In this document: positions 33,891 through 44,162 of the stretch, piece by piece
Position numbering within the stretch: position 1 is the first letter of the stretch
Layout: each line of letters starts with the position of its first letter
NCBI GenBank assembly: GCA_017935505.1
Contig: JAGBHM010000014.1
Coordinates: 62,001 to 126,000 of the forward strand
Reading direction: 5' to 3'
DNA from: Bacteroidales bacterium
GTDB lineage: Bacteria; Bacteroidota; Bacteroidia; Bacteroidales; UBA932
DNA: 64,000 nt
Notes under the pieces: generated by a model
What the model saw: the letters and a program-made list of their open reading frames with translations, nothing else
Told to the model about the DNA's origin: nothing
The model's database searches: none
Program-made: the position numbers and the translations under genes

Positions 33891-35042
33891 ATGAAAAAGA
33901 GTTTTCTTTTAGTAATGGCCGCTCTTTCAATTGTTTCATGCGGTCCAAAGGATAGTGCGGTGGTGAATGTGGAAGTTCCGGGTGCCGCAGGGAAGGAGAT
34001 TGTACTTTCAAAATTACAGGTGAACCAGATTAAAGTTGTTGATACGCTCAAATTGGATTCAAAAGGTGCCGTAAAATACAATGTTTCTGTGGCAGAAGAT
34101 ATGCCTGATTTCTACTATTTGTCATACAACAGAAAAAGATTGGCATCTATGCTTCTCAAAGGTGGTGACAAGGTGAATGTTTCGGTGGATACACTCGGAG
34201 GAGACCTTAAAATCGAGGGCTCTGAGGAGTCTGTTAAATTGGCTGAGATTGAGGCAAAGGTACATCAGTTCACTGCAAAATTCGACTCCCTTTCATACGA
34301 GCTTGTTTCGGCTGTAGAGGCAAATGAGAGTGAAAAAGTTGATAAACTGCAGCATGAACTCGGTCGCCATTTCATTGCATACAAGAGGGCTGCCGTAGCG
34401 GATATCATGAAGAATCCATATTCATTCACAAATGTTACACTGCTGTATCAGCAATTGAATGAGAATCTTCCATTGTTTGGTGATATGACAGACGTTGCAT
34501 ATTTTAAACGTGTGGCTGATTCATTGCAGACAGTCTACCCTAATTCTGTATATGTGAGGTCGCTTAAGGATGAGGTTGCAAAGAAGGAGAACATGCTTGC
34601 ATTGAGCAACAGACTTAAAGCAGCAGAGGAGTTGGCATATCCGGAGCTCTCTCTACCTGATACAAAATCTGAAGTACACAAATTGTCTTCACTTTTGGGC
34701 AAACCTTTTATTCTGATATTCTGGACAAGCACAGTTGCTCAGCAAAAGATGTTCAACCATGACCTCAAAGAGTTGTACAAGAAGTATAATCCTAAAGGCC
34801 TGGAGATATATCAGGTGAGTGCAGATGTTGACAAAGCATCTTGGGCTACAATTGTAAAGGAGCAGGAGTTGCCATGGATAAATGTATGTGATGGCTTTGG
34901 CGCACAATCAACAGCGCTCCATACATACGGAGTTTCAACCTTGCCTGCAATGTTCATTTTTGATAAGGCTGGTACTATTGTGGCAAAAAATATTTTCGAC
35001 AAGGCTGCCCTGGATAGGGAATTGGCCAAATTGTCTTATTAA
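33891..35042 (+). CDS. Thioredoxin-fold lipoprotein without the CxxC motif
   Basis: The 383-residue protein has a lipoprotein signal (LSIVSC, Cys17), an N-terminal DUF4369-like beta domain, a helical middle part (about 110-235) and a C-terminal TlpA/AhpC-like domain from about 250. That domain keeps the strand leading to the active site (PFILIFWTSTVAQQKMF) and the cis-Pro loop (VSTLPAMFIF), but TSTVAQQ replaces the usual W-C-x-x-C. No cysteine pair is present, so classical thiol-disulphide exchange is not expected; it may be a binding or structural relative. It lies 23 bases after the HIT gene. Confidence 0.82.
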   Translation: MKKSFLLVMAALSIVSCGPKDSAVVNVEVPGAAGKEIVLSKLQVNQIKVVDTLKLDSKGAVKYNVSVAEDMPDFYYLSYNRKRLASMLLKGGDKVNVSVDTLGGDLKIEGSEESVKLAEIEAKVHQFTAKFDSLSYELVSAVEANESEKVDKLQHELGRHFIAYKRAAVADIMKNPYSFTNVTLLYQQLNENLPLFGDMTDVAYFKRVADSLQTVYPNSVYVRSLKDEVAKKENMLALSNRLKAAEELAYPELSLPDTKSEVHKLSSLLGKPFILIFWTSTVAQQKMFNHDLKELYKKYNPKGLEIYQVSADVDKASWATIVKEQELPWINVCDGFGAQSTALHTYGVSTLPAMFIFDKAGTIVAKNIFDKAALDRELAKLSY

Positions 35043-35090: not shown

Positions 35091-35777
35091 GAAATCTTTA
35101 AGATAGAAGGGTTCAAAGTATGCAACATCTTTGAACTCTTTTTTATTTAGTAGTGCAGAGGCTATCACACGCATACCTGTGGCATGGGGAAGTTGTTCTG
35201 CAAATATGGCATTGGGATGGTTTACAAGTGGCTTGAACTTCTCCGCACCGTTTCCTGTAAAAAGCACTTTTCCGGATTCCAGCTCCTCTTTAAAACTGTT
35301 TTCATCAAGAATGAGGGCTTTTGTTGGAGAGGTCGCCTCACCTTTTGAATTAAAGGTTGCTGTATATACTTCCATCCTCCTGGCGTCGATCATTGGAACT
35401 ATAGTGTAATTCTCCCCTTCCAGCAGTTTGTTACCGTTTGTATTCACCAGATTGTTATCTATTGCACATTGTGCTATAATATCAAGGGTGCCTACGCCTA
35501 TAAGAGGTTTGCCTGCACCATAGCACAATCCTTTGGCACAAGAGACCCCAACTCTTAAACCGGTATATGAACCGGGGCCCTCACTTACAGCAACTGCGCC
35601 GCAGTCGGCCATTGTCAGATTATTTTCGGCAAGGATATCCTGAATATATCTGGCCAATAGCGAAGCGTGTGACTTGGGTTCATTTATATATTTTTCGGCA
35701 ATAATCTTATCTCCTGAACATATTGCAACTGAGCACGATTCTGTTGCTGTCTCCAATAATAATATGATATTCTCCAT
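35061..35777 (-). CDS. tsaB: tRNA N6-threonylcarbamoyladenosine synthesis protein TsaB
   Basis: TsaB is the non-catalytic ASKHA-fold partner of TsaD in t6A37 tRNA modification. The 238-residue protein has LLLETATESCSVAI, SHASLLARYIQDIL and VAVSEGPGSYTGLRVGVS, all typical. It begins 12 bases after the hlyD stop, so an essential translation gene appears to be the last cistron of the tolC-hlyD transcript. Confidence 0.94.
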   Translation of the reverse strand: MENIILLLETATESCSVAICSGDKIIAEKYINEPKSHASLLARYIQDILAENNLTMADCGAVAVSEGPGSYTGLRVGVSCAKGLCYGAGKPLIGVGTLDIIAQCAIDNNLVNTNGNKLLEGENYTIVPMIDARRMEVYTATFNSKGEATSPTKALILDENSFKEELESGKVLFTGNGAEKFKPLVNHPNAIFAEQLPHATGMRVIASALLNKKEFKDVAYFEPFYLKDFIAGKPKKLL

Positions 35778-35789
35778 GGTGCGGATCCC

Positions 35790-37031
35790 TTATTTATTTT
35801 TATTCAACTCTTTAATAATGACCTTGGTGCCGTTTTGCAGCTCTCTTGTTATTGCACTGTAAGGCCCTGTAATGATCATTGTACTGTCAGAAATGCCTTC
35901 GGTCACTACAATATTCCTCATATCTTGTATTCCTGTCTTTACAACTGTCGCTTTGGCGGTTGAGCTGTTTTTGTCATAGGTGAACAGATATTCGGTCACT
36001 CCTTCCGTTCCTGAATCCTCTGTCAGATCCGGCCTTGTTGTAATGGCCTGCAGCGGAACTGTGAGGACATTATAGCATCTCTCAGTAATTATATTGGCAG
36101 AGGCCGACATCCCCGGTCTGAAAGGAATGGGACTATTTTTGTACAAATCTACATAGGATTCAGGTAAAATCTTTACATGTACCTCAAAATTTGTAACCTG
36201 GTCGCTAGCTGTGCTGAGATCTGCATTTTTCGCAGAGTTTGCTATTTGGGTAACAATCCCTGTAAATTTTCTGTTAGGATATGCATCCACTTCAATGTGT
36301 GCAGTATCAGCAATATTCAGCTTTATTATATCATTCTCATTTACCTCTACAAGAAGTTCCATCTCTTCAAAATTGGCAATTCTCAACATCTCTGTTCCTG
36401 CCATCTGACTTGTACCAACAACCCTTTCCCCCTTTTCTACATCGAGTTTCGATACAATTCCTGACGAAGGGGAATATATTGAGGTCTTGTTGAGGTTTTC
36501 CCTAGCCTCCTTTAATGCCGCCTCAGCACTCTTTACATTGAATTGTGCCGCATTCAACTGCTCTGAAGCAATTTCGTATTGCGACAGAGAATTTTCATAA
36601 TCAGCCTCGGAAATGGCTCTCTGCTCATGCAGCACCTTGTTTCTGTTGTAAGCAAGTTCTGCCTGGGAAAACTGGGCCTTCTGCTGCAGGTATTGGGCCT
36701 TTACTGAATTCAAGGAGGCCTCAGCTCTCTCAACTGCAGAGAGATAGAGATCCTGTTTAATTTTTATCAGCAGGTCACCTGCTTCAACTTTATCACCCTC
36801 TTTTACATTGAGTTCGATTATCTCTCCGGAGACATCGGGGCTTATCTTTATTTCTGAAACAGGTTTTATCTTTCCATTTGCAGGAATGCTCTCTGTTATT
36901 GTACTCCTTTGAGGGTACCCTCCGTCAACCGCAATGCCTTTCTCCTTATTGTTCTGAGAAATTACAATAAGTATGGCAATGACTGCAAAGGCAATGATTA
37001 GTATATGTTTTTTCTTTTTGTTCTGCTTCAT
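35790..37031 (-). CDS. HlyD/MFP-family periplasmic adaptor
   Basis: The 413-residue adaptor has a short basic N-terminus, one membrane anchor (about 9-22), a lipoyl half-motif (ISPDVSGEIIELNVKEGDKV), a long coiled-coil hairpin at about 90-190, the second lipoyl half (TSIYSPSSGIVSKLDVEKGE, seen as IYSPSSGIVS) and beta-barrel and membrane-proximal domains. Such proteins bridge an inner-membrane transporter to TolC. The usual neighbour, a MacB-type ABC permease, is absent. The nearest inner-membrane transporter is the C39 ABC exporter at 38905-40995, which makes this its likely adaptor. Confidence 0.9.
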   Translation of the reverse strand: MKQNKKKKHILIIAFAVIAILIVISQNNKEKGIAVDGGYPQRSTITESIPANGKIKPVSEIKISPDVSGEIIELNVKEGDKVEAGDLLIKIKQDLYLSAVERAEASLNSVKAQYLQQKAQFSQAELAYNRNKVLHEQRAISEADYENSLSQYEIASEQLNAAQFNVKSAEAALKEARENLNKTSIYSPSSGIVSKLDVEKGERVVGTSQMAGTEMLRIANFEEMELLVEVNENDIIKLNIADTAHIEVDAYPNRKFTGIVTQIANSAKNADLSTASDQVTNFEVHVKILPESYVDLYKNSPIPFRPGMSASANIITERCYNVLTVPLQAITTRPDLTEDSGTEGVTEYLFTYDKNSSTAKATVVKTGIQDMRNIVVTEGISDSTMIITGPYSAITRELQNGTKVIIKELNKNK

Positions 37032-37044
37032 CGTAAACGGGATA

Positions 37045-38370
37045 TTATAGTTTTATCGGGACCCCTCTGTAGAAGTCCAGTATTTTCATCTGGAATATAT
37101 ATTGGAACTTTGCCTGGAGAGATTCCGATTCTGATTTGAAGAGATTGTTCTTGGCTACAACATATTCTATGCCTGTAACCATTCCTACATTGAATTTCTG
37201 CTCTGTATATACGAACGATTCGCGTGCAGCGGCAACATTCTTCTCCGCAGCACTATATTTTTCATAGGCATTCTCTGCATTGTTGTAGGCCTGTGCTATC
37301 TCCTTATATAATTGTTGGTGTGACTTTTCCAGTTCGAGTTCGCTCCTTTCAATATTAAGGCGTGCATTGCGTATGGCGGTGTTTGTACTCCATCCATTGA
37401 ATATGGGAATGCTCATTGAGAACCCGATGGATGGATTTCTGTTGTCATCAAACTGACTAAAGAAGGCCTGTTCCCGGCTATCGCTGTAATATGTGCCGTA
37501 TCCTGCTGAAAAAGAGATGGAAGGATATGCTCTTCCTCTTTGGATTTTATAATCATACCGGCTCTTTTCAAGTGCCAGTTCCGCCGATTTGATCTGAGGC
37601 AGTGATTGTGCAGATCTGAATATCTCATCAATATTTCCGACAGGCAGCCTCTGTGCAATATCCTCCATATCTGGTATCTCTATATTAAAGCTGCTTCCGA
37701 CAGGCAGGTCAAGCAGTTGCATAAGGTTGAGACGGTTGTTTTTTAGGTCATTTCCGGCGCTTACCAGCTGCAGGCGGTCATTGGCAAGCTGTGCCTGTAT
37801 CTCCAGCAGTGAACTGTAGGCCTGGCTACCCGCATCAACAAGTTTCTGGGTGCGTGCAACCTGTCCCTCGGTGCTTTTGAGAGTTGCCTCAGCGCATTTT
37901 TCAATCTCAGCCGCCAGAAGTGTCTGCAGGTATGCCTGAGTAATGGCAATGGTTATATCATTCTCAAGTTTCTCCACATCATTACGGGAGATGAGCAGCT
38001 CAATTTTACTGCTCTTGAGAGTATTTATTTTTGTAAGTCCTTGGATAAGAGGCATTGATGCGCTCAGATTGGCGCTGGTGCTTTGGGTAAGTTTGTTGGT
38101 AATCTGCAAATCGTTTATATTCACAGACTTACCCCAATTCATGCTGTGGTTTACTGAGGCATTGAACGATGGTATGAAATCGAGTTTTGCCTGCTGCACG
38201 TTATTTTCAAATTGGGAAGCGGCAACTTTCTGCTGTTTTATCTGCAGATTGCTGCGATGGGCATGCTCTATGCAACGCTCAAGACTCCACATATCCTGTG
38301 CCGGCATAATTTCAGGCCAAAGCGACAGAATGGAGCAAAGGATTACTATAACTGATTTTTTTGAGACCAT
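37045..38370 (-). CDS. TolC-family outer-membrane efflux protein
   Basis: The 441-residue protein has a signal peptide and two outer-membrane efflux repeats, with long heptad-like helices (about 150-210 and 330-400) that form the periplasmic tunnel. It begins with MWSLERCIEHAHRSNLQI after the signal, a common start in this family. It forms a two-gene unit with hlyD (13 bases apart). A TATATTTG box lies immediately upstream, and a terminator separates it from the peptide genes. Confidence 0.92.
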   Translation of the reverse strand: MVSKKSVIVILCSILSLWPEIMPAQDMWSLERCIEHAHRSNLQIKQQKVAASQFENNVQQAKLDFIPSFNASVNHSMNWGKSVNINDLQITNKLTQSTSANLSASMPLIQGLTKINTLKSSKIELLISRNDVEKLENDITIAITQAYLQTLLAAEIEKCAEATLKSTEGQVARTQKLVDAGSQAYSSLLEIQAQLANDRLQLVSAGNDLKNNRLNLMQLLDLPVGSSFNIEIPDMEDIAQRLPVGNIDEIFRSAQSLPQIKSAELALEKSRYDYKIQRGRAYPSISFSAGYGTYYSDSREQAFFSQFDDNRNPSIGFSMSIPIFNGWSTNTAIRNARLNIERSELELEKSHQQLYKEIAQAYNNAENAYEKYSAAEKNVAAARESFVYTEQKFNVGMVTGIEYVVAKNNLFKSESESLQAKFQYIFQMKILDFYRGVPIKL

Positions 38371-38455: not shown

Positions 38456-38650
38456 TTACCACTTATAGTAGTAGCCGTTGGCAGACTGCATTGCAAGTTC
38501 TCGTCCACCTCTGTTTATTATAAGGTATACAAGCCTGGCAAAAGCACCGGCGCATTGCGCTACAATTTCTACAATATTGGCTATGCTCTCATTGCGTCCT
38601 CCGTATACGGTAGCGGATTCTGCCTCATTGATTAAAACAAACTTCTCCAT
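38456..38650 (-). CDS. Double-glycine-leader peptide 2 (64 residues)
   Basis: The start is taken at the ATG at 38650, which follows a GGAGGAG site; an ATG at 38665 would add five residues. The peptide begins MEKFVLINEAESATVYGG, a plausible C39-type leader with Val at -4, Glu at -8 and Gly-Gly at -2/-1. The predicted mature part of 46 residues starts RNESIANIVEIVAQ, is hydrophobic in the middle with one Cys (AQCAGAFARLVYLIINRGG), and ends in an aromatic basic tail (NGYYYKW). Its ATG overlaps the stop of peptide 1 (TAATG), so the two are coupled. No homologue is recognised. Export by the adjacent C39 transporter is inferred. Confidence 0.65.
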   Translation of the reverse strand: MEKFVLINEAESATVYGGRNESIANIVEIVAQCAGAFARLVYLIINRGGRELAMQSANGYYYKW

Positions 38651-38838
38651 TACAGGCTCCTCCATCCTTTTTTGAATCCACGATACATATCCTCCTTATA
38701 CTCGGATATGAAATCCATGAAAAGTTTGAGATATCGGACAAGGTTGAATATCTCCCTCCATGCAGTTCCCCCTCTAATTTGCAGCTCTGCAGTGGTTATC
38801 TCTGCAAAGTTGCTCTTTTTCAACACTTTTTTATTCAT
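38650..38838 (-). CDS. Double-glycine-leader peptide 1 (62 residues)
   Basis: The peptide has a 24-residue leader beginning MNKKVLKKSNFAEITT and ending AELQIRGG, with Ile at -4 and Gly-Gly at -2/-1, as expected for processing by C39 peptidases and similar to leaders of Bacteroidales peptide precursors. The predicted mature part has 38 residues, starts TAWREIFNLVRYLKLF and ends FKKGWRSL. It is rich in aromatic and basic residues (estimated net charge about +3), has no Cys, and could form an amphipathic helix. It lies 66 bases after the exporter gene. No maturation enzyme is nearby. A bacteriocin or signal peptide role is inference. Confidence 0.68.
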   Translation of the reverse strand: MNKKVLKKSNFAEITTAELQIRGGTAWREIFNLVRYLKLFMDFISEYKEDMYRGFKKGWRSL

Positions 38839-38855
38839 AATAGAAATTTTATTGT

Positions 38856-38878
38856 GCCTACAGTAATGGTGCGTAGGC
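38856..38878 (-). other. Small hairpin between exporter and peptide genes
   Basis: The arms GCCTAC / GTAGGC enclose an 11-base loop in the 66-base gap. On the minus strand the tail (ACAATAAAATTTC) is not a good T-tract, so this is more likely an RNA processing, stability or partial-attenuation element than a terminator. Confidence 0.4.
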
Positions 38879-38904
38879 TGCCACCTCTTGAGCGCGCACT
38901 CAAC

Positions 38905-40995
38905 TTATGGAATTACTACAACTCTCTCCGCAAAATCTTTGAACATTCTGTTATGTGAAATTATTATTATTGTTTTTCCACACTCCTTAAGGTGCTGGAA
39001 AAGTTTTATTATCACTCTTTCCGACTCCTCATCCATAGAAGAGGTGGATTCATCGAAAATCATTATCTGTGGATCTTTGTAGAGCATTCTTGCTATAGCA
39101 ATTTTCTGCATCTCACCTCCCGACAGAGTGATTCCCTCCTCTCCGATATTTGTAAGGAGTCCCGACGGAAATTTAGCCAGAGCCTCTGCAAGTCCGACCG
39201 AGATGCAGATCTCCATCACCTTTTCAAGATCGGCATTGCCACTGCCGCATGTGATATTGTCGAGAATGGAGGCATTGTACATATGGCACTTCTGAGGAAC
39301 TATGGAGATATCTCTTCTCCACTCCTTCGGACTTATGGTGGTAATATCAATCTCTTCGCAGAATATTTTTCCCTTTCCAATTTTATAATCCTGCATGAGC
39401 AGTGCCATAAGTGTACTCTTTCCGCAGCCTATCTCTCCGCAGACCAGTGTAATTTTTCCCTGTTCAAACAGTGCATTGAAATTTTTGAACAGCGGATTGC
39501 CTCCCGGGTAGGAGTAGGAGAGGTCCCTGACCGAGATGGTTTTTACCGCTCTCCTGAAATTCGGCATTGTGCCGGCCATCTTTCCATTTGTGTTGGCCCC
39601 TTCATCCTCCAGATCCATTATCTCAAAGAGCCTCTCGGCTGAAACTATGGCTTGAGTAATGAGAGGGCTCATATTTGCAATATTTGAGAGAGGGGAGCAG
39701 AATATTGTACTCAATGTATAGAATGAGACCAATTCTCCCAAAGTTATCTTTCCCTTTAAAACAGCAAATACTCCGCATACCAGAATTGTGGCGGAAAGGG
39801 CTCTGGAGATGGCTTCTGAAGAGACTCCAAAGAATACCTCTGCTTTTGAGGCCCTGAAGAGCCTCTCTGCCATAGTACAATAACTTTTTTCCACCTTTTT
39901 TGAGGAGAGCTCCTCTGCTCCATAGTGCCTTGAGGTGACACTTCCCTCTATACTATGGAGAAGGTCTGTTTCAAATCTGGCTCCACTTTCGGCTAGAGCC
40001 CGGTTGTATCTTTTGTTTATTGAACCGGAGAGTATGTACAAACCTGCATACATGGGTATGAATGATACTGCAAGCAGGGCCAGAGAGCTGTTGTAGCAGA
40101 ACATCAGAGGAATAGAGATTGCCAGAGTTGCCAGACTTACAAAGATTGATACAACTCCTCCCGATATCAGCAGCCTGATATTGAAGGCATCACTTGTCCT
40201 CGAACTTACCTCTCCAGGCTGGTACCGGTTCAAGTGTTCCAATGGGAGTGACGATATTTTATTTAAATACTTTATTATAAGAGTGTTATCTATTTTTGTG
40301 CCATGAATGGCAAGATATCTTCCTTTTGCATAATTTATAAATAGGGCAAGACCTGCAAGAGTGGCGATGGCCAGTGAAATGGATATTAGCATCTCCAGAT
40401 CTTTTTCAGGCAGAGCTATGTCTATAATCTGCTGTATGAAGATTGAGGTACTTATTCCTATAAGAGATACGGCAACGGTGCCGGCAATGGCATGCAGCAT
40501 CTCCTTTCTGTTTGAGTATGCAAGTCTGGAGAGTTTGAGCAGCGTGTCTCCCTTCTCATTTATTTTCCGGAACCCCTTTCCCGGTTCAAGAACAATTATA
40601 TACCCGCTCCACTCCTTTGAGAATCTTTCCTGTGTCCACTTTTCAACTCTTCCGGAGGCTGGATCCATTACGGTGATGTATCCTTTTTCTGCCGCATATA
40701 CCGCAATAAAGTGGTAAAAACCGTTTTCTCTCTTTATATGGGCGATAGCCGGCAGCGGTATCTCATCCAGTGCTTGAGGATCCTTTTGGACTGCCCTGTA
40801 TGCTCTGCCCTCCATATCCAGTTTTTTTGCTCCTTCAATTATCCCCTTTATTGTAATTCCCTCTTTTGTACAACCACACAGATACCTCGATTTTGCAAGC
40901 GTAATAATCCTTCCATGCCACGCTGCTACAGAGCACAGTGATGCCGCGCCACAATCGTAGAAACTCTGCTGCTTTATCCTTACTGCCCTTTTCAT
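38905..40995 (-). CDS. C39 peptidase-containing ABC exporter (PCAT)
   Basis: The 696-residue protein joins three domains. Residues 1-135 are a C39 cysteine peptidase with Cys15 (FYDCGAASL), His95 (GFYHFIAVY) and Asp111 (TVMDPASG). Residues about 160-440 are an ABC exporter membrane domain with six spans. Residues about 480-696 are a nucleotide-binding domain with Walker A GEIGCGKST, signature LSGGEMQKIAIARM, Walker B IMIFDEST and the switch His (IIISHNRM). PCATs cut double-glycine leaders and export the mature peptide. Two such peptides are encoded just downstream, and tolC-hlyD lie beyond them. The start codon overlaps the stop of a 49-residue membrane protein gene (ATGA). Confidence 0.93.
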   Translation of the reverse strand: MKRAVRIKQQSFYDCGAASLCSVAAWHGRIITLAKSRYLCGCTKEGITIKGIIEGAKKLDMEGRAYRAVQKDPQALDEIPLPAIAHIKRENGFYHFIAVYAAEKGYITVMDPASGRVEKWTQERFSKEWSGYIIVLEPGKGFRKINEKGDTLLKLSRLAYSNRKEMLHAIAGTVAVSLIGISTSIFIQQIIDIALPEKDLEMLISISLAIATLAGLALFINYAKGRYLAIHGTKIDNTLIIKYLNKISSLPLEHLNRYQPGEVSSRTSDAFNIRLLISGGVVSIFVSLATLAISIPLMFCYNSSLALLAVSFIPMYAGLYILSGSINKRYNRALAESGARFETDLLHSIEGSVTSRHYGAEELSSKKVEKSYCTMAERLFRASKAEVFFGVSSEAISRALSATILVCGVFAVLKGKITLGELVSFYTLSTIFCSPLSNIANMSPLITQAIVSAERLFEIMDLEDEGANTNGKMAGTMPNFRRAVKTISVRDLSYSYPGGNPLFKNFNALFEQGKITLVCGEIGCGKSTLMALLMQDYKIGKGKIFCEEIDITTISPKEWRRDISIVPQKCHMYNASILDNITCGSGNADLEKVMEICISVGLAEALAKFPSGLLTNIGEEGITLSGGEMQKIAIARMLYKDPQIMIFDESTSSMDEESERVIIKLFQHLKECGKTIIIISHNRMFKDFAERVVVIP

Positions 40996-41141
40996 TGTTT
41001 TACTAATGAGATAATTATGGACAGAGCCAATAGAATTGCAACATAATATGCTATAGTAAAGGGCAAGGATACCGACAGATATTGCTCATCCCTGCTGCCG
41101 CCTGCTTCTGCAGACTTCTCTCCAAATCTCTTCCAGATCAT
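40992..41141 (-). CDS. 49-residue single-span membrane protein coupled to the PCAT gene
   Basis: This short frame begins with ATG at 41141, preceded by a GGAGG site 6 bases upstream, and ends in a TGA that overlaps the ATG of the C39 exporter gene (ATGA), the classic arrangement for translational coupling. The product starts MIWKRFGEKSAEAGG, has about 10 polar residues and then one strong membrane span (about 27-47, PFTIAYYVAILLALSIII), and ends LVKQ. It could be an accessory subunit of the exporter or an immunity-type protein. A Gly-Gly at 14-15 also allows a third cargo, though the leader would be short and atypical. No homologue is recognised. Confidence 0.6.
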   Translation of the reverse strand: MIWKRFGEKSAEAGGSRDEQYLSVSLPFTIAYYVAILLALSIIISLVKQ

Positions 41142-41190: not shown

Positions 41191-41234
41191 TAAAAAAGAA
41201 ACAGAAGCGTAAAAAAATGAAATTTTACGCCTCT
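41191..41234 (-). terminator. Terminator downstream of cvpA
   Basis: On the minus strand GAGGCGTAAAA pairs with TTTTACGCTTC (one mismatch) around a short loop and is followed by TGTTTCTTTTTTA. It separates the nagA-nagA-cvpA run from the peptide-export genes. Confidence 0.7.
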
Positions 41235-41275
41235 GAAAATATTTCTATCCGATTAATACGTATAAAAATCGGAAA

Positions 41276-41781: not shown

Positions 41782-42948
41782 CTAATTGTGCTGTAATGTG
41801 TCAGTTCCAGGAACAAGGTTGCCCTGTGACCATACAGCTCTTACATTAAGGTTATTGTCGAGAATAACAATATCAGCATCCTTTCCTTTTTCAAGAGAGC
41901 CTTTCCTGTTTGAGATGCCCATTATTCTTGCAGGGGTTTCAGATGCCATCCTTACAGCATCTTCCAGCGGAATACCGGCTTTGTTTACCATGGTCCTGAT
42001 GAGGACATCCATGGTTGCGATACTTCCTACCAGAGATGAGTGGTCTGCCAGTTTGCATACACCGTCTTCTATTATTATAGGTGAACCTTCTGCAGGTCTG
42101 ATGTCGCTTCCGGCATACAGAAGGGCATCAGTAACAAGGCAGGTGCGCTCCACTCCTTTCAGTTTATATACCATTTTCAGGATGGTATGAGGCAGATGGT
42201 GTCCGTCGGCAATTACCTCTACGGTCATATCATCAATCAGATAGACACTTTCAACTGTTCCCTCATATTTATACTCCTGACGTTTGTGGAAGCCTGGCAT
42301 TGAGTTGTAGAAGTTGGCTGTATGGGTGAAGCCTGCTTCATGGGCAGCCTTTATATCTTCAAACTCCGCCTCTGTATGGGTAATTGTTGCCAGAATACCT
42401 CTCTCGGTGAGGGCTTTGGCCAGCTCGTGCGCTCCAGGTAGTTCCGGGCTGATATCCCATCTCTTTATACACTCCGTGCTCTCTAGAATTGCTGTGTACT
42501 CAGCCTTATCCGGATTCTTCACTTTGTGGATAGGACCGGACATCTTGTGGTTCAAGTATGGTCCGGCAAGATGAAGCCCCATCACCTGAGAACCCTTCTC
42601 CTTCATCAATTTTTCACAAATGTCTATGGCTTTGTATATTGATTCTGCTGGAGATGTTGCAAGAGTAGGGAATATGCTTGTTGCACCATATTTCAGGTGA
42701 GTTGAAATGACAGTCCTGAAAGCCTCCTCTTCGCACTCCCTGAAATCACGTCCGCCACCACCATAAACATTCATGGCAATGAATCCGGGAACTATATACA
42801 TTCCCTTTGCATCGATAGTCTCCGCTCCAATAATGGAGAGCTCGTTATCTGTAACCGCCAAAATTTTTCCGTTGTTGACTATTACTGAGCCTCCCTTGGT
42901 CCAGCCTCCGGGAGTCAGAATCTTTCCATTGGTAATCTGGGTAAGCAT
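41782..42948 (-). CDS. NagA paralogue lacking the metal site (probable pseudoenzyme)
   Basis: This 388-residue protein aligns end to end with its upstream neighbour NagA and has an intact frame. Key residues are changed, however: the HxH metal motif reads N60-V-Y62 (AMNVYGGGG), the metal-ligand Glu in HLEG is Ala128 (GLHLAGP), and the His in THATHFYN is Asn212 (THTANFYN). It keeps His191 (ITHTEAEF), the DGHH motif and catalytic Asp274 (LVTDALL). Loss of both histidines and the Glu argues against normal deacetylase activity. A regulatory, sugar-binding or complex-forming role beside the active NagA, or a changed reaction, is possible. It starts 12 bases after that gene. Confidence 0.85.
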   Translation of the reverse strand: MLTQITNGKILTPGGWTKGGSVIVNNGKILAVTDNELSIIGAETIDAKGMYIVPGFIAMNVYGGGGRDFRECEEEAFRTVISTHLKYGATSIFPTLATSPAESIYKAIDICEKLMKEKGSQVMGLHLAGPYLNHKMSGPIHKVKNPDKAEYTAILESTECIKRWDISPELPGAHELAKALTERGILATITHTEAEFEDIKAAHEAGFTHTANFYNSMPGFHKRQEYKYEGTVESVYLIDDMTVEVIADGHHLPHTILKMVYKLKGVERTCLVTDALLYAGSDIRPAEGSPIIIEDGVCKLADHSSLVGSIATMDVLIRTMVNKAGIPLEDAVRMASETPARIMGISNRKGSLEKGKDADIVILDNNLNVRAVWSQGNLVPGTDTLQHN

Positions 42949-42960
42949 AAAGCGTATATA

Positions 42961-44127
42961 TTAGAATAGTTTGTTGGTACCTTCAACTAGTTTTCCCATC
43001 GCCCATACGGCGCGTACATTCAACTCTTTGTCGAGAACAAGTATATCTGCATCCTTACCTCTCTGGAGTGAGCCTTTGCGGTCATAAACTCCCATAATCT
43101 TGGCAGGAGTCTCAGATGCCATGCGGATTGTATCTTCCAATGGAACCTCTGCTTTCTGCACCATGGTCTTGATAAGTCTGTCCATAGTTGCAATACTGCC
43201 GGCAAGGGCCGATCTGTCTGCAAGTTTGCATACACCGTCCTCTATAATAACCCTTGGGTCGAATGCTGTCTGGCTGTCGCTGGCAGCGCAAGCCAATGCG
43301 TCTGTAATGAGACATGTGCGCTCAACACCCTTGACTTTATAAACAAGTCTCAGAATTGTAGGAGGAACATGTATTCCGTCGGCAACAACCTCCACAGTCA
43401 TGTCATCAATGAGATAGATACTCTCCACTGTACCCTCGTATTTGTACTCGCGGCGTTTGTGGAATCCTGGCATTGCATTGTAGAAGTGGGTTGCGTGGGT
43501 ATATCCGGCCTGATATGCAGTCATGATATCTTCATACTCAGCCTGTGTGTGTCCTACAGAGGCCAATACACCTTTTGAAGTTATATATTTTCCAAATTGC
43601 ATTGCTCCCGGCAATTCAGGGGCTGCATCCCAGCGTTTGATGCAGTTTGTCTCTTCGAGAAGGGGAATATATTCGTTAGGGTCAGGATTCTTTATATTTT
43701 CAGGAAGCTGTCCGCCTGCCATCTTCATGTTGAAGTAGTGGCCTTCCAGATGGAGACCGAGTACCGGACTGTCCTTTTCTGCCATAAGTTTCTCTGTGGT
43801 GGCAGCAGCAGCGCGTATCATAGGAATTGTTGAAGAGGACAATGTAGGGAAGATACTGGTAGTACCATGTTGCATATGTGCCTTCACAGCCTCTCTGAAA
43901 GCATCTTCGGTACCCTCCATAAAATCCCTTCCGCCACCGCCGTGCGCATGGATTTCAATACCGCCTGGCACAATGTACATCCCTTTGGCATCAATGAGGT
44001 TTGCTCCAACAACGGCCATATCGCAATTTGTAACTTCAAGAATCTTGTTGTCCCTCATTATCACAGAGCCATCTTTAAGCCATCCTTGAGGGGTGAGGAT
44101 CTTTCCATTTATGATTTGTGTAAGCAT
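42961..44127 (-). CDS. nagA: N-acetylglucosamine-6-phosphate deacetylase
   Basis: NagA hydrolyses N-acetylglucosamine 6-phosphate to glucosamine 6-phosphate and acetate in amino-sugar recycling. The 388-residue amidohydrolase has the metal motif EIH60-A-H62, Glu128 in GLHLEGH, His193 in VGHTQAEY, His214 in THATHFYNAM, the DGIH motif and catalytic Asp276 (LITDAL). The usual Pro after HLEG is His here. The ATG at 44127 gives a start identical in wording to the paralogue; an upstream TTG would add 10 residues. It is the first of three cotranscribed genes (nagA, nagA-like, cvpA). Confidence 0.93.
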   Translation of the reverse strand: MLTQIINGKILTPQGWLKDGSVIMRDNKILEVTNCDMAVVGANLIDAKGMYIVPGGIEIHAHGGGGRDFMEGTEDAFREAVKAHMQHGTTSIFPTLSSSTIPMIRAAAATTEKLMAEKDSPVLGLHLEGHYFNMKMAGGQLPENIKNPDPNEYIPLLEETNCIKRWDAAPELPGAMQFGKYITSKGVLASVGHTQAEYEDIMTAYQAGYTHATHFYNAMPGFHKRREYKYEGTVESIYLIDDMTVEVVADGIHVPPTILRLVYKVKGVERTCLITDALACAASDSQTAFDPRVIIEDGVCKLADRSALAGSIATMDRLIKTMVQKAEVPLEDTIRMASETPAKIMGVYDRKGSLQRGKDADILVLDKELNVRAVWAMGKLVEGTNKLF

Positions 44128-44154
44128 AATCGTCTCATTTAATAAATCAGGCAA

Positions 44155-44162
44155 CAAAATTA
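44155..44162 (-). promoter_or_regulatory. -7 box for the nagA run
   Basis: TAATTTTG on the minus strand fits TAnnTTTG, 28 bases before the nagA ATG. No -33 match is seen. Confidence 0.4.

What the first reader, a model, noticed from the sequence alone, without database searches (positions are those of the whole stretch)
38456..41141. Compact peptide-export locus: two overlapping double-glycine peptides, a C39 ABC exporter and a coupled 49-residue membrane protein
Seen: two short genes with TAATG overlap encode peptides of 62 and 64 residues whose N-termini end in IRGG and VYGG with a hydrophobic residue at -4. The gene just upstream encodes an ABC exporter with an intact C39 peptidase (Cys15, His95, Asp111), and tolC and hlyD lie downstream. 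Known: C39 exporters cut after Gly-Gly leaders of bacteriocins and signalling peptides. Inferred: this is a complete two-peptide secretion system. No radical SAM, lanthipeptide or other modifying enzyme is in the window, so the mature peptides (38 and 46 residues) may act unmodified, perhaps as a pair. Neither mature sequence is one I recognise.
Basis: partly seen in the sequence, partly recalled or inferred. Interest (0 to 1): 0.85.

Follow-up and report, generated by a model that had tools for sequence, protein, structure and literature searches.

The report
Two-peptide export operon, family-wide in Bacteroidales
A family of uncultured gut bacteria carries, in the same chromosomal place in species after species, a small operon that exports two matched helical peptides; they are built like the two-part bacteriocins of lactic acid bacteria, but nobody has yet shown what they do.

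Summary
Two coupled genes encode 62- and 64-residue peptides with double-glycine leaders, next to a C39-peptidase ABC exporter, a 49-residue single-helix protein, tolC and an hlyD-type adaptor.

The window is from a Candidatus Egerieousia-type MAG (uncultured gut Bacteroidales). The pair was found in all 67 loci examined that carry the exporter in this operon and have sequence downstream. They span 11 of 26 genera of the GTDB family, nearly all in the synteny ileS<|cvpA>C39>P1>P2>tolC>hlyD>tsaB>. Both peptides are under purifying selection, stronger on the mature part than on the leader. The exporter follows the species tree.

Both mature peptides are predicted single amphipathic helices. Each has a GxxxG-type motif in all 67 loci (P1 G54xxxG58, P2 A31xxxG35 here). 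In one genus a CAAX-protease-like gene, a known class IIb immunity family, sits between P2 and tolC.

Best reading: a vertically inherited, class IIb-like two-peptide bacteriocin system in Gram-negative bacteria. Activity, immunity and target are untested. The 49-residue protein is not a universal immunity protein: it was not found in 24 of 64 loci. Signalling or self-lysis is not excluded.

The parts
38650..38838 (-). P1: 62-aa double-glycine precursor; leader 38767-38838 (ends QIRGG), mature 38 aa 38653-38766; GxxxG (G54-G58) at 38665-38679
   Evidence: homologues at 67 of 67 loci (39); G54 67/67, G58 63/67 plus 4 Ala (42); helix 27-61 predicted (64)
38456..38650 (-). P2: 64-aa double-glycine precursor; leader 38597-38650 (ends TVYGG), mature 46 aa 38459-38596; AxxxG (A31-G35) at 38546-38560
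   Evidence: homologues at 67 of 67 loci (39); G35 67/67, position 31 Gly 48 / Ala 19 (42); helix 21-58 predicted (65)
38905..40995 (-). Peptidase-containing ABC exporter: C39 (C15, H95, D111), ABC membrane and ATPase domains
   Evidence: Pfam above cut-off; catalytic residues invariant in A1; orthologues in the genus
40992..41141 (-). 49-aa single-TM protein with soluble N-terminus, ATGA-coupled to the exporter; accessory or immunity candidate
   Evidence: comparable ORFs upstream of the exporter in 40 of 64 loci; no Pfam match
37045..38370 (-). TolC-type outer-membrane channel, next gene downstream
   Evidence: Pfam OEP 9e-65; syntenic
35790..37031 (-). HlyD/RND_mfp-type periplasmic adaptor
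   Evidence: NCBIfam TIGR01730 above cut-off, Pfam HlyD_D23; syntenic
41202..41235 (-). Intrinsic-terminator-like hairpin plus T-run between cvpA and the 49-aa ORF; plausible upstream operon boundary
   Evidence: 13 pairs, tail TTTCTTTTTT; consensus match only

Best explanation
This is a class IIb-like two-peptide bacteriocin system of Gram-negative Bacteroidales. P1 and P2 are made in coupled, probably matched amounts. The C39 domain cuts each after Gly-Gly (inferred from catalytic residues and leaders), and the exporter secretes the helical mature parts, probably through the linked HlyD-type adaptor and TolC (inferred). Outside, the two amphipathic helices pair through their GxxxG-type motifs and act on a membrane of a competing, probably related, cell (inferred). 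Producer protection is not universal in form: a CAAX-protease-like gene in one genus, perhaps the small TM protein in others, otherwise unknown. Shown: gene order, conservation, purifying selection, motifs, mainly vertical inheritance. Inferred: cleavage, export route, pairing, killing.
For: Pair at 67 of 67 operon loci, always P1 then P2, stop-to-start offset from -16 to +48 nt with 19 overlaps. Leaders of median 22 and 18 aa ending in GG; intact C39 triad. Mature peptides of median 41 and 42 aa, net charge +2 and +3. Strict GxxxG in 63 of 67 P1 against 15.6 expected by shuffling and 48 of 67 P2 against 13.1; by column, the other 4 P1 have GxxxA and the other 19 P2 AxxxG. Amphipathic beyond the shuffled mean in 67 of 67 and 66 of 67. 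AlphaFold places one helix starting 2-3 residues after GG in each. Mature part more constrained than leader, pN/pS 0.17 and 0.16 against 0.37 and 0.32. A CAAX-protease-like gene lies between P2 and tolC at four loci of one genus; three were scanned and match PF02517 at 54-61 bits, cut-off 22.4. This Abi family includes the class IIb immunity proteins PlnI and PlnL and the sakacin 23K protein SkkI (PMC8538875; PMC6957408). GxxxG or GxxxG-like motifs occur in all characterized class IIb bacteriocins (PMC6382864).
Against: Most loci have no recognisable immunity gene: P2-to-tolC gaps are 27-277 nt in 58 of 62 loci, and the upstream TM ORF was not found in 24 of 64. A vertically inherited locus under strong purifying selection is unlike many bacteriocins, which are patchy. 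The peptides match no bacteriocin family above cut-off. Short amphipathic helices with GxxxG can serve other roles. No activity data exist. The adaptor-TolC pair persists without the exporter in G010, so it is not strictly dedicated. The loci come from MAGs, and the HMMs were trained on the same loci they then scored.
Confidence: 0.58

Rival explanations
1. P1 and P2 are cell-to-cell signals (pheromone-type double-glycine peptides) that report density or kinship through an unlinked receptor.
For: The exporter type serves signalling as well as competition (PMC7018657 abstract). Vertical inheritance and strong constraint on the mature part suit a conserved communal function. P1 of this genome matches Pfam ComC, 24 bits against a cut-off of 20.4.
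Against: The ComC match covers residues 1-31 and is shared by 1 of 46 homologues. No kinase or regulator among the neighbouring genes; the flanks are housekeeping genes. Two long amphipathic GxxxG helices always together look like a complex rather than a ligand.
Confidence: 0.17
2. Self-directed or envelope-directed peptides: the pair acts on the producer or its kin, for example in autolysis, surface coating or aggregation, rather than on competitors.
For: Gonococcal Nap peptides are bacteriocin-like, have no detectable antimicrobial activity and promote autolysis (PMC11798529). Caulobacter CdzC/CdzD are glycine-zipper proteins that stay on the cell surface (PMC5380434). Immunity genes are not evident at most loci, and the locus is inherited with the species.
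Against: The CAAX-protease-like gene in one genus fits immunity. The peptides are mixed charged/hydrophobic helices, not the small-residue-rich glycine zippers of CdzC/D.
Confidence: 0.15
3. Ordinary single-peptide double-glycine bacteriocins that happen to be adjacent, each acting alone.
For: Bacteroidales loci outside the family also carry one or two other GG peptides next to a C39 exporter, and bacteroidetocins act as single peptides (PMC6671954).
Against: Strict co-occurrence and order at 67 of 67 loci, tight coupling, and GxxxG-type motifs in both.
Confidence: 0.08

Closest known systems
Class IIb two-peptide bacteriocins of Gram-positive bacteria (lactococcin G, plantaricin S, EF, JK)
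   Same: Two adjacent double-glycine precursors, unmodified-looking amphipathic helical mature peptides of about 40 residues, GxxxG-type motif in each, C39 exporter; Abi/CAAX-protease-like gene in one genus.
   Different: Gram-negative host with linked TolC and adaptor; no recognised sequence family; immunity gene usually not evident; mainly vertical inheritance across genera; activity unknown.
Cdz system of Caulobacter crescentus (CdzABCDI; PMC5380434)
   Same: Gram-negative, type I secretion, two small GxxxG proteins, small TM protein in the cluster.
   Different: CdzC/D are 84-86 residues, rich in small residues, with RTX-like N-terminal signals; the immunity gene cdzI is in the cdzCDI operon. 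Here C39 exporter, GG leaders, TM ORF before the exporter.
Bacteroidetocins (Coyne et al. 2019, PMC6671954)
   Same: Bacteroidetes, C39-type peptidase/ABC exporter, GG leader, mature peptide about 42 residues, TM protein in the cluster.
   Different: Single peptides, 15-16 residue leaders, at least two Cys, and mostly a thiol oxidoreductase gene. Here two peptides; Cys not conserved.
ComC/BlpC double-glycine pheromones
   Same: P1 leader region matches ComC above the Pfam cut-off in this genome only.
   Different: 1 of 46 homologues matches; the NCBIfam BlpC match is far below cut-off; no linked kinase or regulator.
Neisseria autolysis peptides, Naps (PMC11798529)
   Same: Bacteriocin-like peptides in a Gram-negative; a model for a non-antagonistic role.
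   Different: Three cationic peptides on a horizontally acquired island; sequence relation not tested.

Membership tests
Class IIb two-peptide bacteriocins | Two different, adjacent peptide genes | tested here: met
   67 of 67 operon loci, P1 then P2
Class IIb two-peptide bacteriocins | Double-glycine leader and C39 exporter in the same cluster | tested here: met
   (position 24 of P1 and 18 of P2 Gly in 67/67)
Class IIb two-peptide bacteriocins | GxxxG or GxxxG-like motif in each mature peptide | tested here: met
   definition from PMC6382864
Class IIb two-peptide bacteriocins | Unmodified, helix-forming amphipathic peptides | tested here: inconclusive
   Helix predicted (mean pLDDT 74 and 71), amphipathic; modification state not testable here
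Class IIb two-peptide bacteriocins | Dedicated membrane immunity protein | tested here: inconclusive
   CAAX-protease-like gene in 4 loci of one genus; upstream TM ORF in 40 of 64; none found elsewhere
Class IIb two-peptide bacteriocins | Synergistic antimicrobial activity of the two peptides | not testable with these tools
   needs synthetic peptides and indicator strains
Class IIb two-peptide bacteriocins | Sequence match to a curated bacteriocin family (supporting, not strictly defining) | tested here: not met
   Scattered weak hits only, including one P2 homologue to lactococcin G-beta at E 0.009
ComC family pheromones (PF03047) | Family-wide match to the ComC model | tested here: not met
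   1 of 46 P1 homologues
ComC family pheromones (PF03047) | Linked histidine kinase / response regulator | tested here: not met
   None among neighbouring genes; unlinked receptors not excluded
Bacteroidetocins | Conserved Cys residues and thiol oxidoreductase gene | tested here: not met
   Mature Cys in only 15 of 67 P1 and 21 of 67 P2; no oxidoreductase in the operon. A thioredoxin-like gene (33891-35042) lies nearby on the other strand
C39 peptidase-containing ABC transporters (PCAT) | C39 catalytic Cys, His, Asp plus ABC membrane and ATPase domains | tested here: met
Cdz contact-dependent system | RTX-like N-terminal signals and extended glycine zippers | tested here: not met
   GG leaders and mixed helices here; Cdz features from PMC5380434

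The most novel reading that the evidence does not exclude
The pair is not a weapon but a conserved physiological or social device of this Bacteroidales family: two exported helices that assemble on or between the producer's own kind (signal, self-lysis or surface assembly), inherited with the species like a housekeeping locus.
Probability: 0.27. Interest if true: 0.78.

Novelty: new variant of a known kind. Interest (0 to 1): 0.6.

Why it matters
Bacteroidetocins are the class II bacteriocins reported from Bacteroidales in the papers read here, and they act singly. A two-peptide, GxxxG-type system with a linked TolC and adaptor would add a second architecture, in uncultured gut and rumen lineages. 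Because it is inherited mainly vertically and kept by selection across at least 11 genera, it raises a testable question: why would a bacteriocin-like pair be so widely retained? The answer bears on competition within ruminant and monogastric guts, and on whether 'bacteriocin-like' always means antagonism.

Tried and rejected
Plasmid search with the locus DNA: no match. First genome-contig scan with the single exporter sequence: no relative; it worked with the alignment. ComC pheromone membership: rejected. Universal immunity role for the 49-residue protein: not supported; the ORF criteria were crude (Kyte-Doolittle threshold). In one clade a piece resembling its N-terminus (EEFPQWALLPGK) seems joined to the exporter's start, which would suit an exporter accessory, but this was judged by eye. 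PDB searches with both profiles: nothing below E 0.17. P1/P2 homology with GG peptides of other Bacteroidales families: core-shuffled controls scored as well, except for L167a of the same family, so no claim. P2 profile in 198 order genomes: only two family members; P1 profile: one weak hit outside the family (G097, E 3e-5), a GG peptide followed by a small TM peptide, not pursued. The C39 count in the family (125 of 200) includes paralogues outside the operon with other or no GG peptides, so it was not used as the operon's frequency.

Full report
What was checked. On the minus strand, in order of transcription, lie a 49-residue ORF (41141-40992), the C39 ABC exporter (40995-38905), P1 (38838-38650), P2 (38650-38456), tolC (38370-37045), an HlyD/RND_mfp-type adaptor (37031-35790) and tsaB (35777-35061). 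The 49-residue ORF and the exporter overlap by ATGA, and P1 and P2 overlap in TAATG. A terminator-like hairpin at 41235-41202 separates the set from cvpA (consensus match only). The exporter has intact C39, membrane and ATPase domains; C15, H95 and D111 are invariant in 12 orthologues.

Where it comes from. The window is part of a 2.24-Mb draft genome. A scan of named genomes with an exporter alignment returned Candidatus Egerieousia excrementavium and E. equi, Ca. Cacconaster equi and many unnamed rumen and gut Bacteroidales MAGs (taxonomy). From memory, the GTDB family is UBA932; the tools did not name it.

Distribution. In the genus, 37 of 39 held genomes have a C39 match, and every one of the 37 has the exporter at this place, complete or cut by a contig end or a run of N. 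Most loci show ileS< | cvpA> exporter> P1> P2> tolC> hlyD> tsaB>; in a few, cvpA-ileS sits on the other side, but exporter-P1-P2-tolC-hlyD-tsaB stays together. One 93%-complete genome (G010) lacks the exporter, P1, P2 and the small ORF as a block and keeps cvpA next to tolC-hlyD-tsaB, so the block is dispensable. In the family, 125 of 200 genomes have an exporter match at E below 1e-80, but that count includes paralogues elsewhere. The P2 profile is the better guide: 26 of 60 family genomes in 11 of 26 genera, and only 2 of 198 order genomes, both in this family. P1 gave one weak hit outside the family.

The pair. With an ordering constraint, P1 and P2 were found at 67 of 67 loci that have the exporter in this operon and enough sequence downstream. 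A 68th, diverged pair lies at L167. The HMMs were trained on these loci, so detection is partly circular, but the invariance of the mature-part glycines was not a selection criterion. P1 position 54 is Gly in 67 of 67 and position 58 Gly in 63 (Ala in 4). P2 position 35 is Gly in 67 of 67, and position 31 is Gly in 48 and Ala in 19. Strict GxxxG in the mature part occurs in 63 P1 and 48 P2 against 15.6 and 13.1 expected by shuffling. The helical moment exceeds the shuffled mean in 67 and 66. AlphaFold with 46-row alignments gives one helix in each, residues 27-61 of P1 and 21-58 of P2, directly after the leader (mean pLDDT 74 and 71, so a moderate-confidence prediction).

Selection and inheritance. 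Over 18 pairs of related loci, pooled pN/pS is 0.22 for P1 and 0.21 for P2. It is 0.17 and 0.16 in the mature parts and 0.37 and 0.32 in the leaders. Exporter distances correlate with ileS distances at r = 0.76 (Mantel, 0 of 300 permutations as high), the same as tsaB with ileS, 0.74. This supports mainly vertical inheritance; no rooted tree comparison was made.

Immunity and the small protein. A short ORF with one hydrophobic stretch lies just upstream of the exporter in 40 of 64 loci and was not found in several whole groups that keep both peptides. It is therefore unlikely to be the general immunity protein, and an exporter accessory is as likely. In the four readable loci of genus g203 an extra 235-246 residue gene lies between P2 and tolC. 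The three examples scanned match PF02517 at 54-61 bits, cut-off 22.4, and carry EELLFRE or EELIFRE, an FSLCHRP stretch and an HWxY[ND] stretch, as expected for Abi proteins (motifs in PMC6957408). Abi-family proteins are involved in self-protection against plantaricins EF and JK and sakacin 23K (PMC8538875). This is the strongest hint of a bacteriocin role, but it concerns one genus. The own genome has two PF02517 proteins, neither in the operon; the nearer is about 26 kb away.

What it is. P1 and P2 as sets match no curated family: ComC fits only this genome's P1, 1 of 46 homologues. The anatomy is that of class IIb two-peptide bacteriocins in a Gram-negative with linked adaptor and TolC. I therefore say it works like a class IIb system with confidence about 0.58 and do not file it as a proven member: synergy, activity and immunity are untested. 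Signalling (0.17) and self-directed roles (0.15) remain open. Family-wide vertical inheritance and the missing immunity gene are the observations that the bacteriocin reading explains least well.

Limits. All genomes are drafts, mostly MAGs. Exporter, IleS and TolC sequences for the distance test were taken from tblastn ranges, not full genes. Start codons of the peptides were chosen by rule. The literature search covers open-access papers only; of the five papers holding both 'Bacteroidales' and 'two-peptide bacteriocin' none appears, from title and abstract, to describe such a system in Bacteroidales, which is not proof of absence.

Noticed in passing
G000:C10:72000-90000 (L072), outside the window: Second C39 exporter of the same genome, beside an 86-aa Cys-containing GG peptide, an outer-membrane-receptor-like 780-aa gene and a 444-aa gene that may be a peptide-maturation enzyme (by eye); looks like a separate peptide-export locus.
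   Followed up: partly
L177, L178, L183, L184 between P2 and tolC: CAAX-protease-like (PF02517) gene in the operon in one genus; candidate immunity protein.
   Followed up: yes
L046, L047, L066 upstream of the exporter: In one clade the small TM ORF is gone, and a piece resembling its N-terminus (EEFPQWALLPGK) appears to be fused to the start of the exporter frame.
   Followed up: partly
L070:3108-3544 (G049, another family): Two GG peptides (64 and 66 aa, leaders ending RGG and YGG) before an hlyD-like gene and a C39 exporter; similar layout, but no sequence similarity beyond shuffled controls.
   Followed up: partly
L195:1347-1722 (G097): GG peptide with a P1-like C-terminus (FKDVREGLSDGYAG) followed by a 61-aa TM peptide; weak P1-profile hit outside the family.
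   Followed up: no
41782-44157: Two tandem nagA-like (N-acetylglucosamine-6-phosphate deacetylase-type) genes next to cvpA, on the operon's strand; identified by eye only.
   Followed up: no
35777-35790: tsaB follows the hlyD-type gene by 12 bases and stays linked in most relatives, so a tRNA-modification gene that is essential in many bacteria may be co-transcribed with the export operon.
   Followed up: partly
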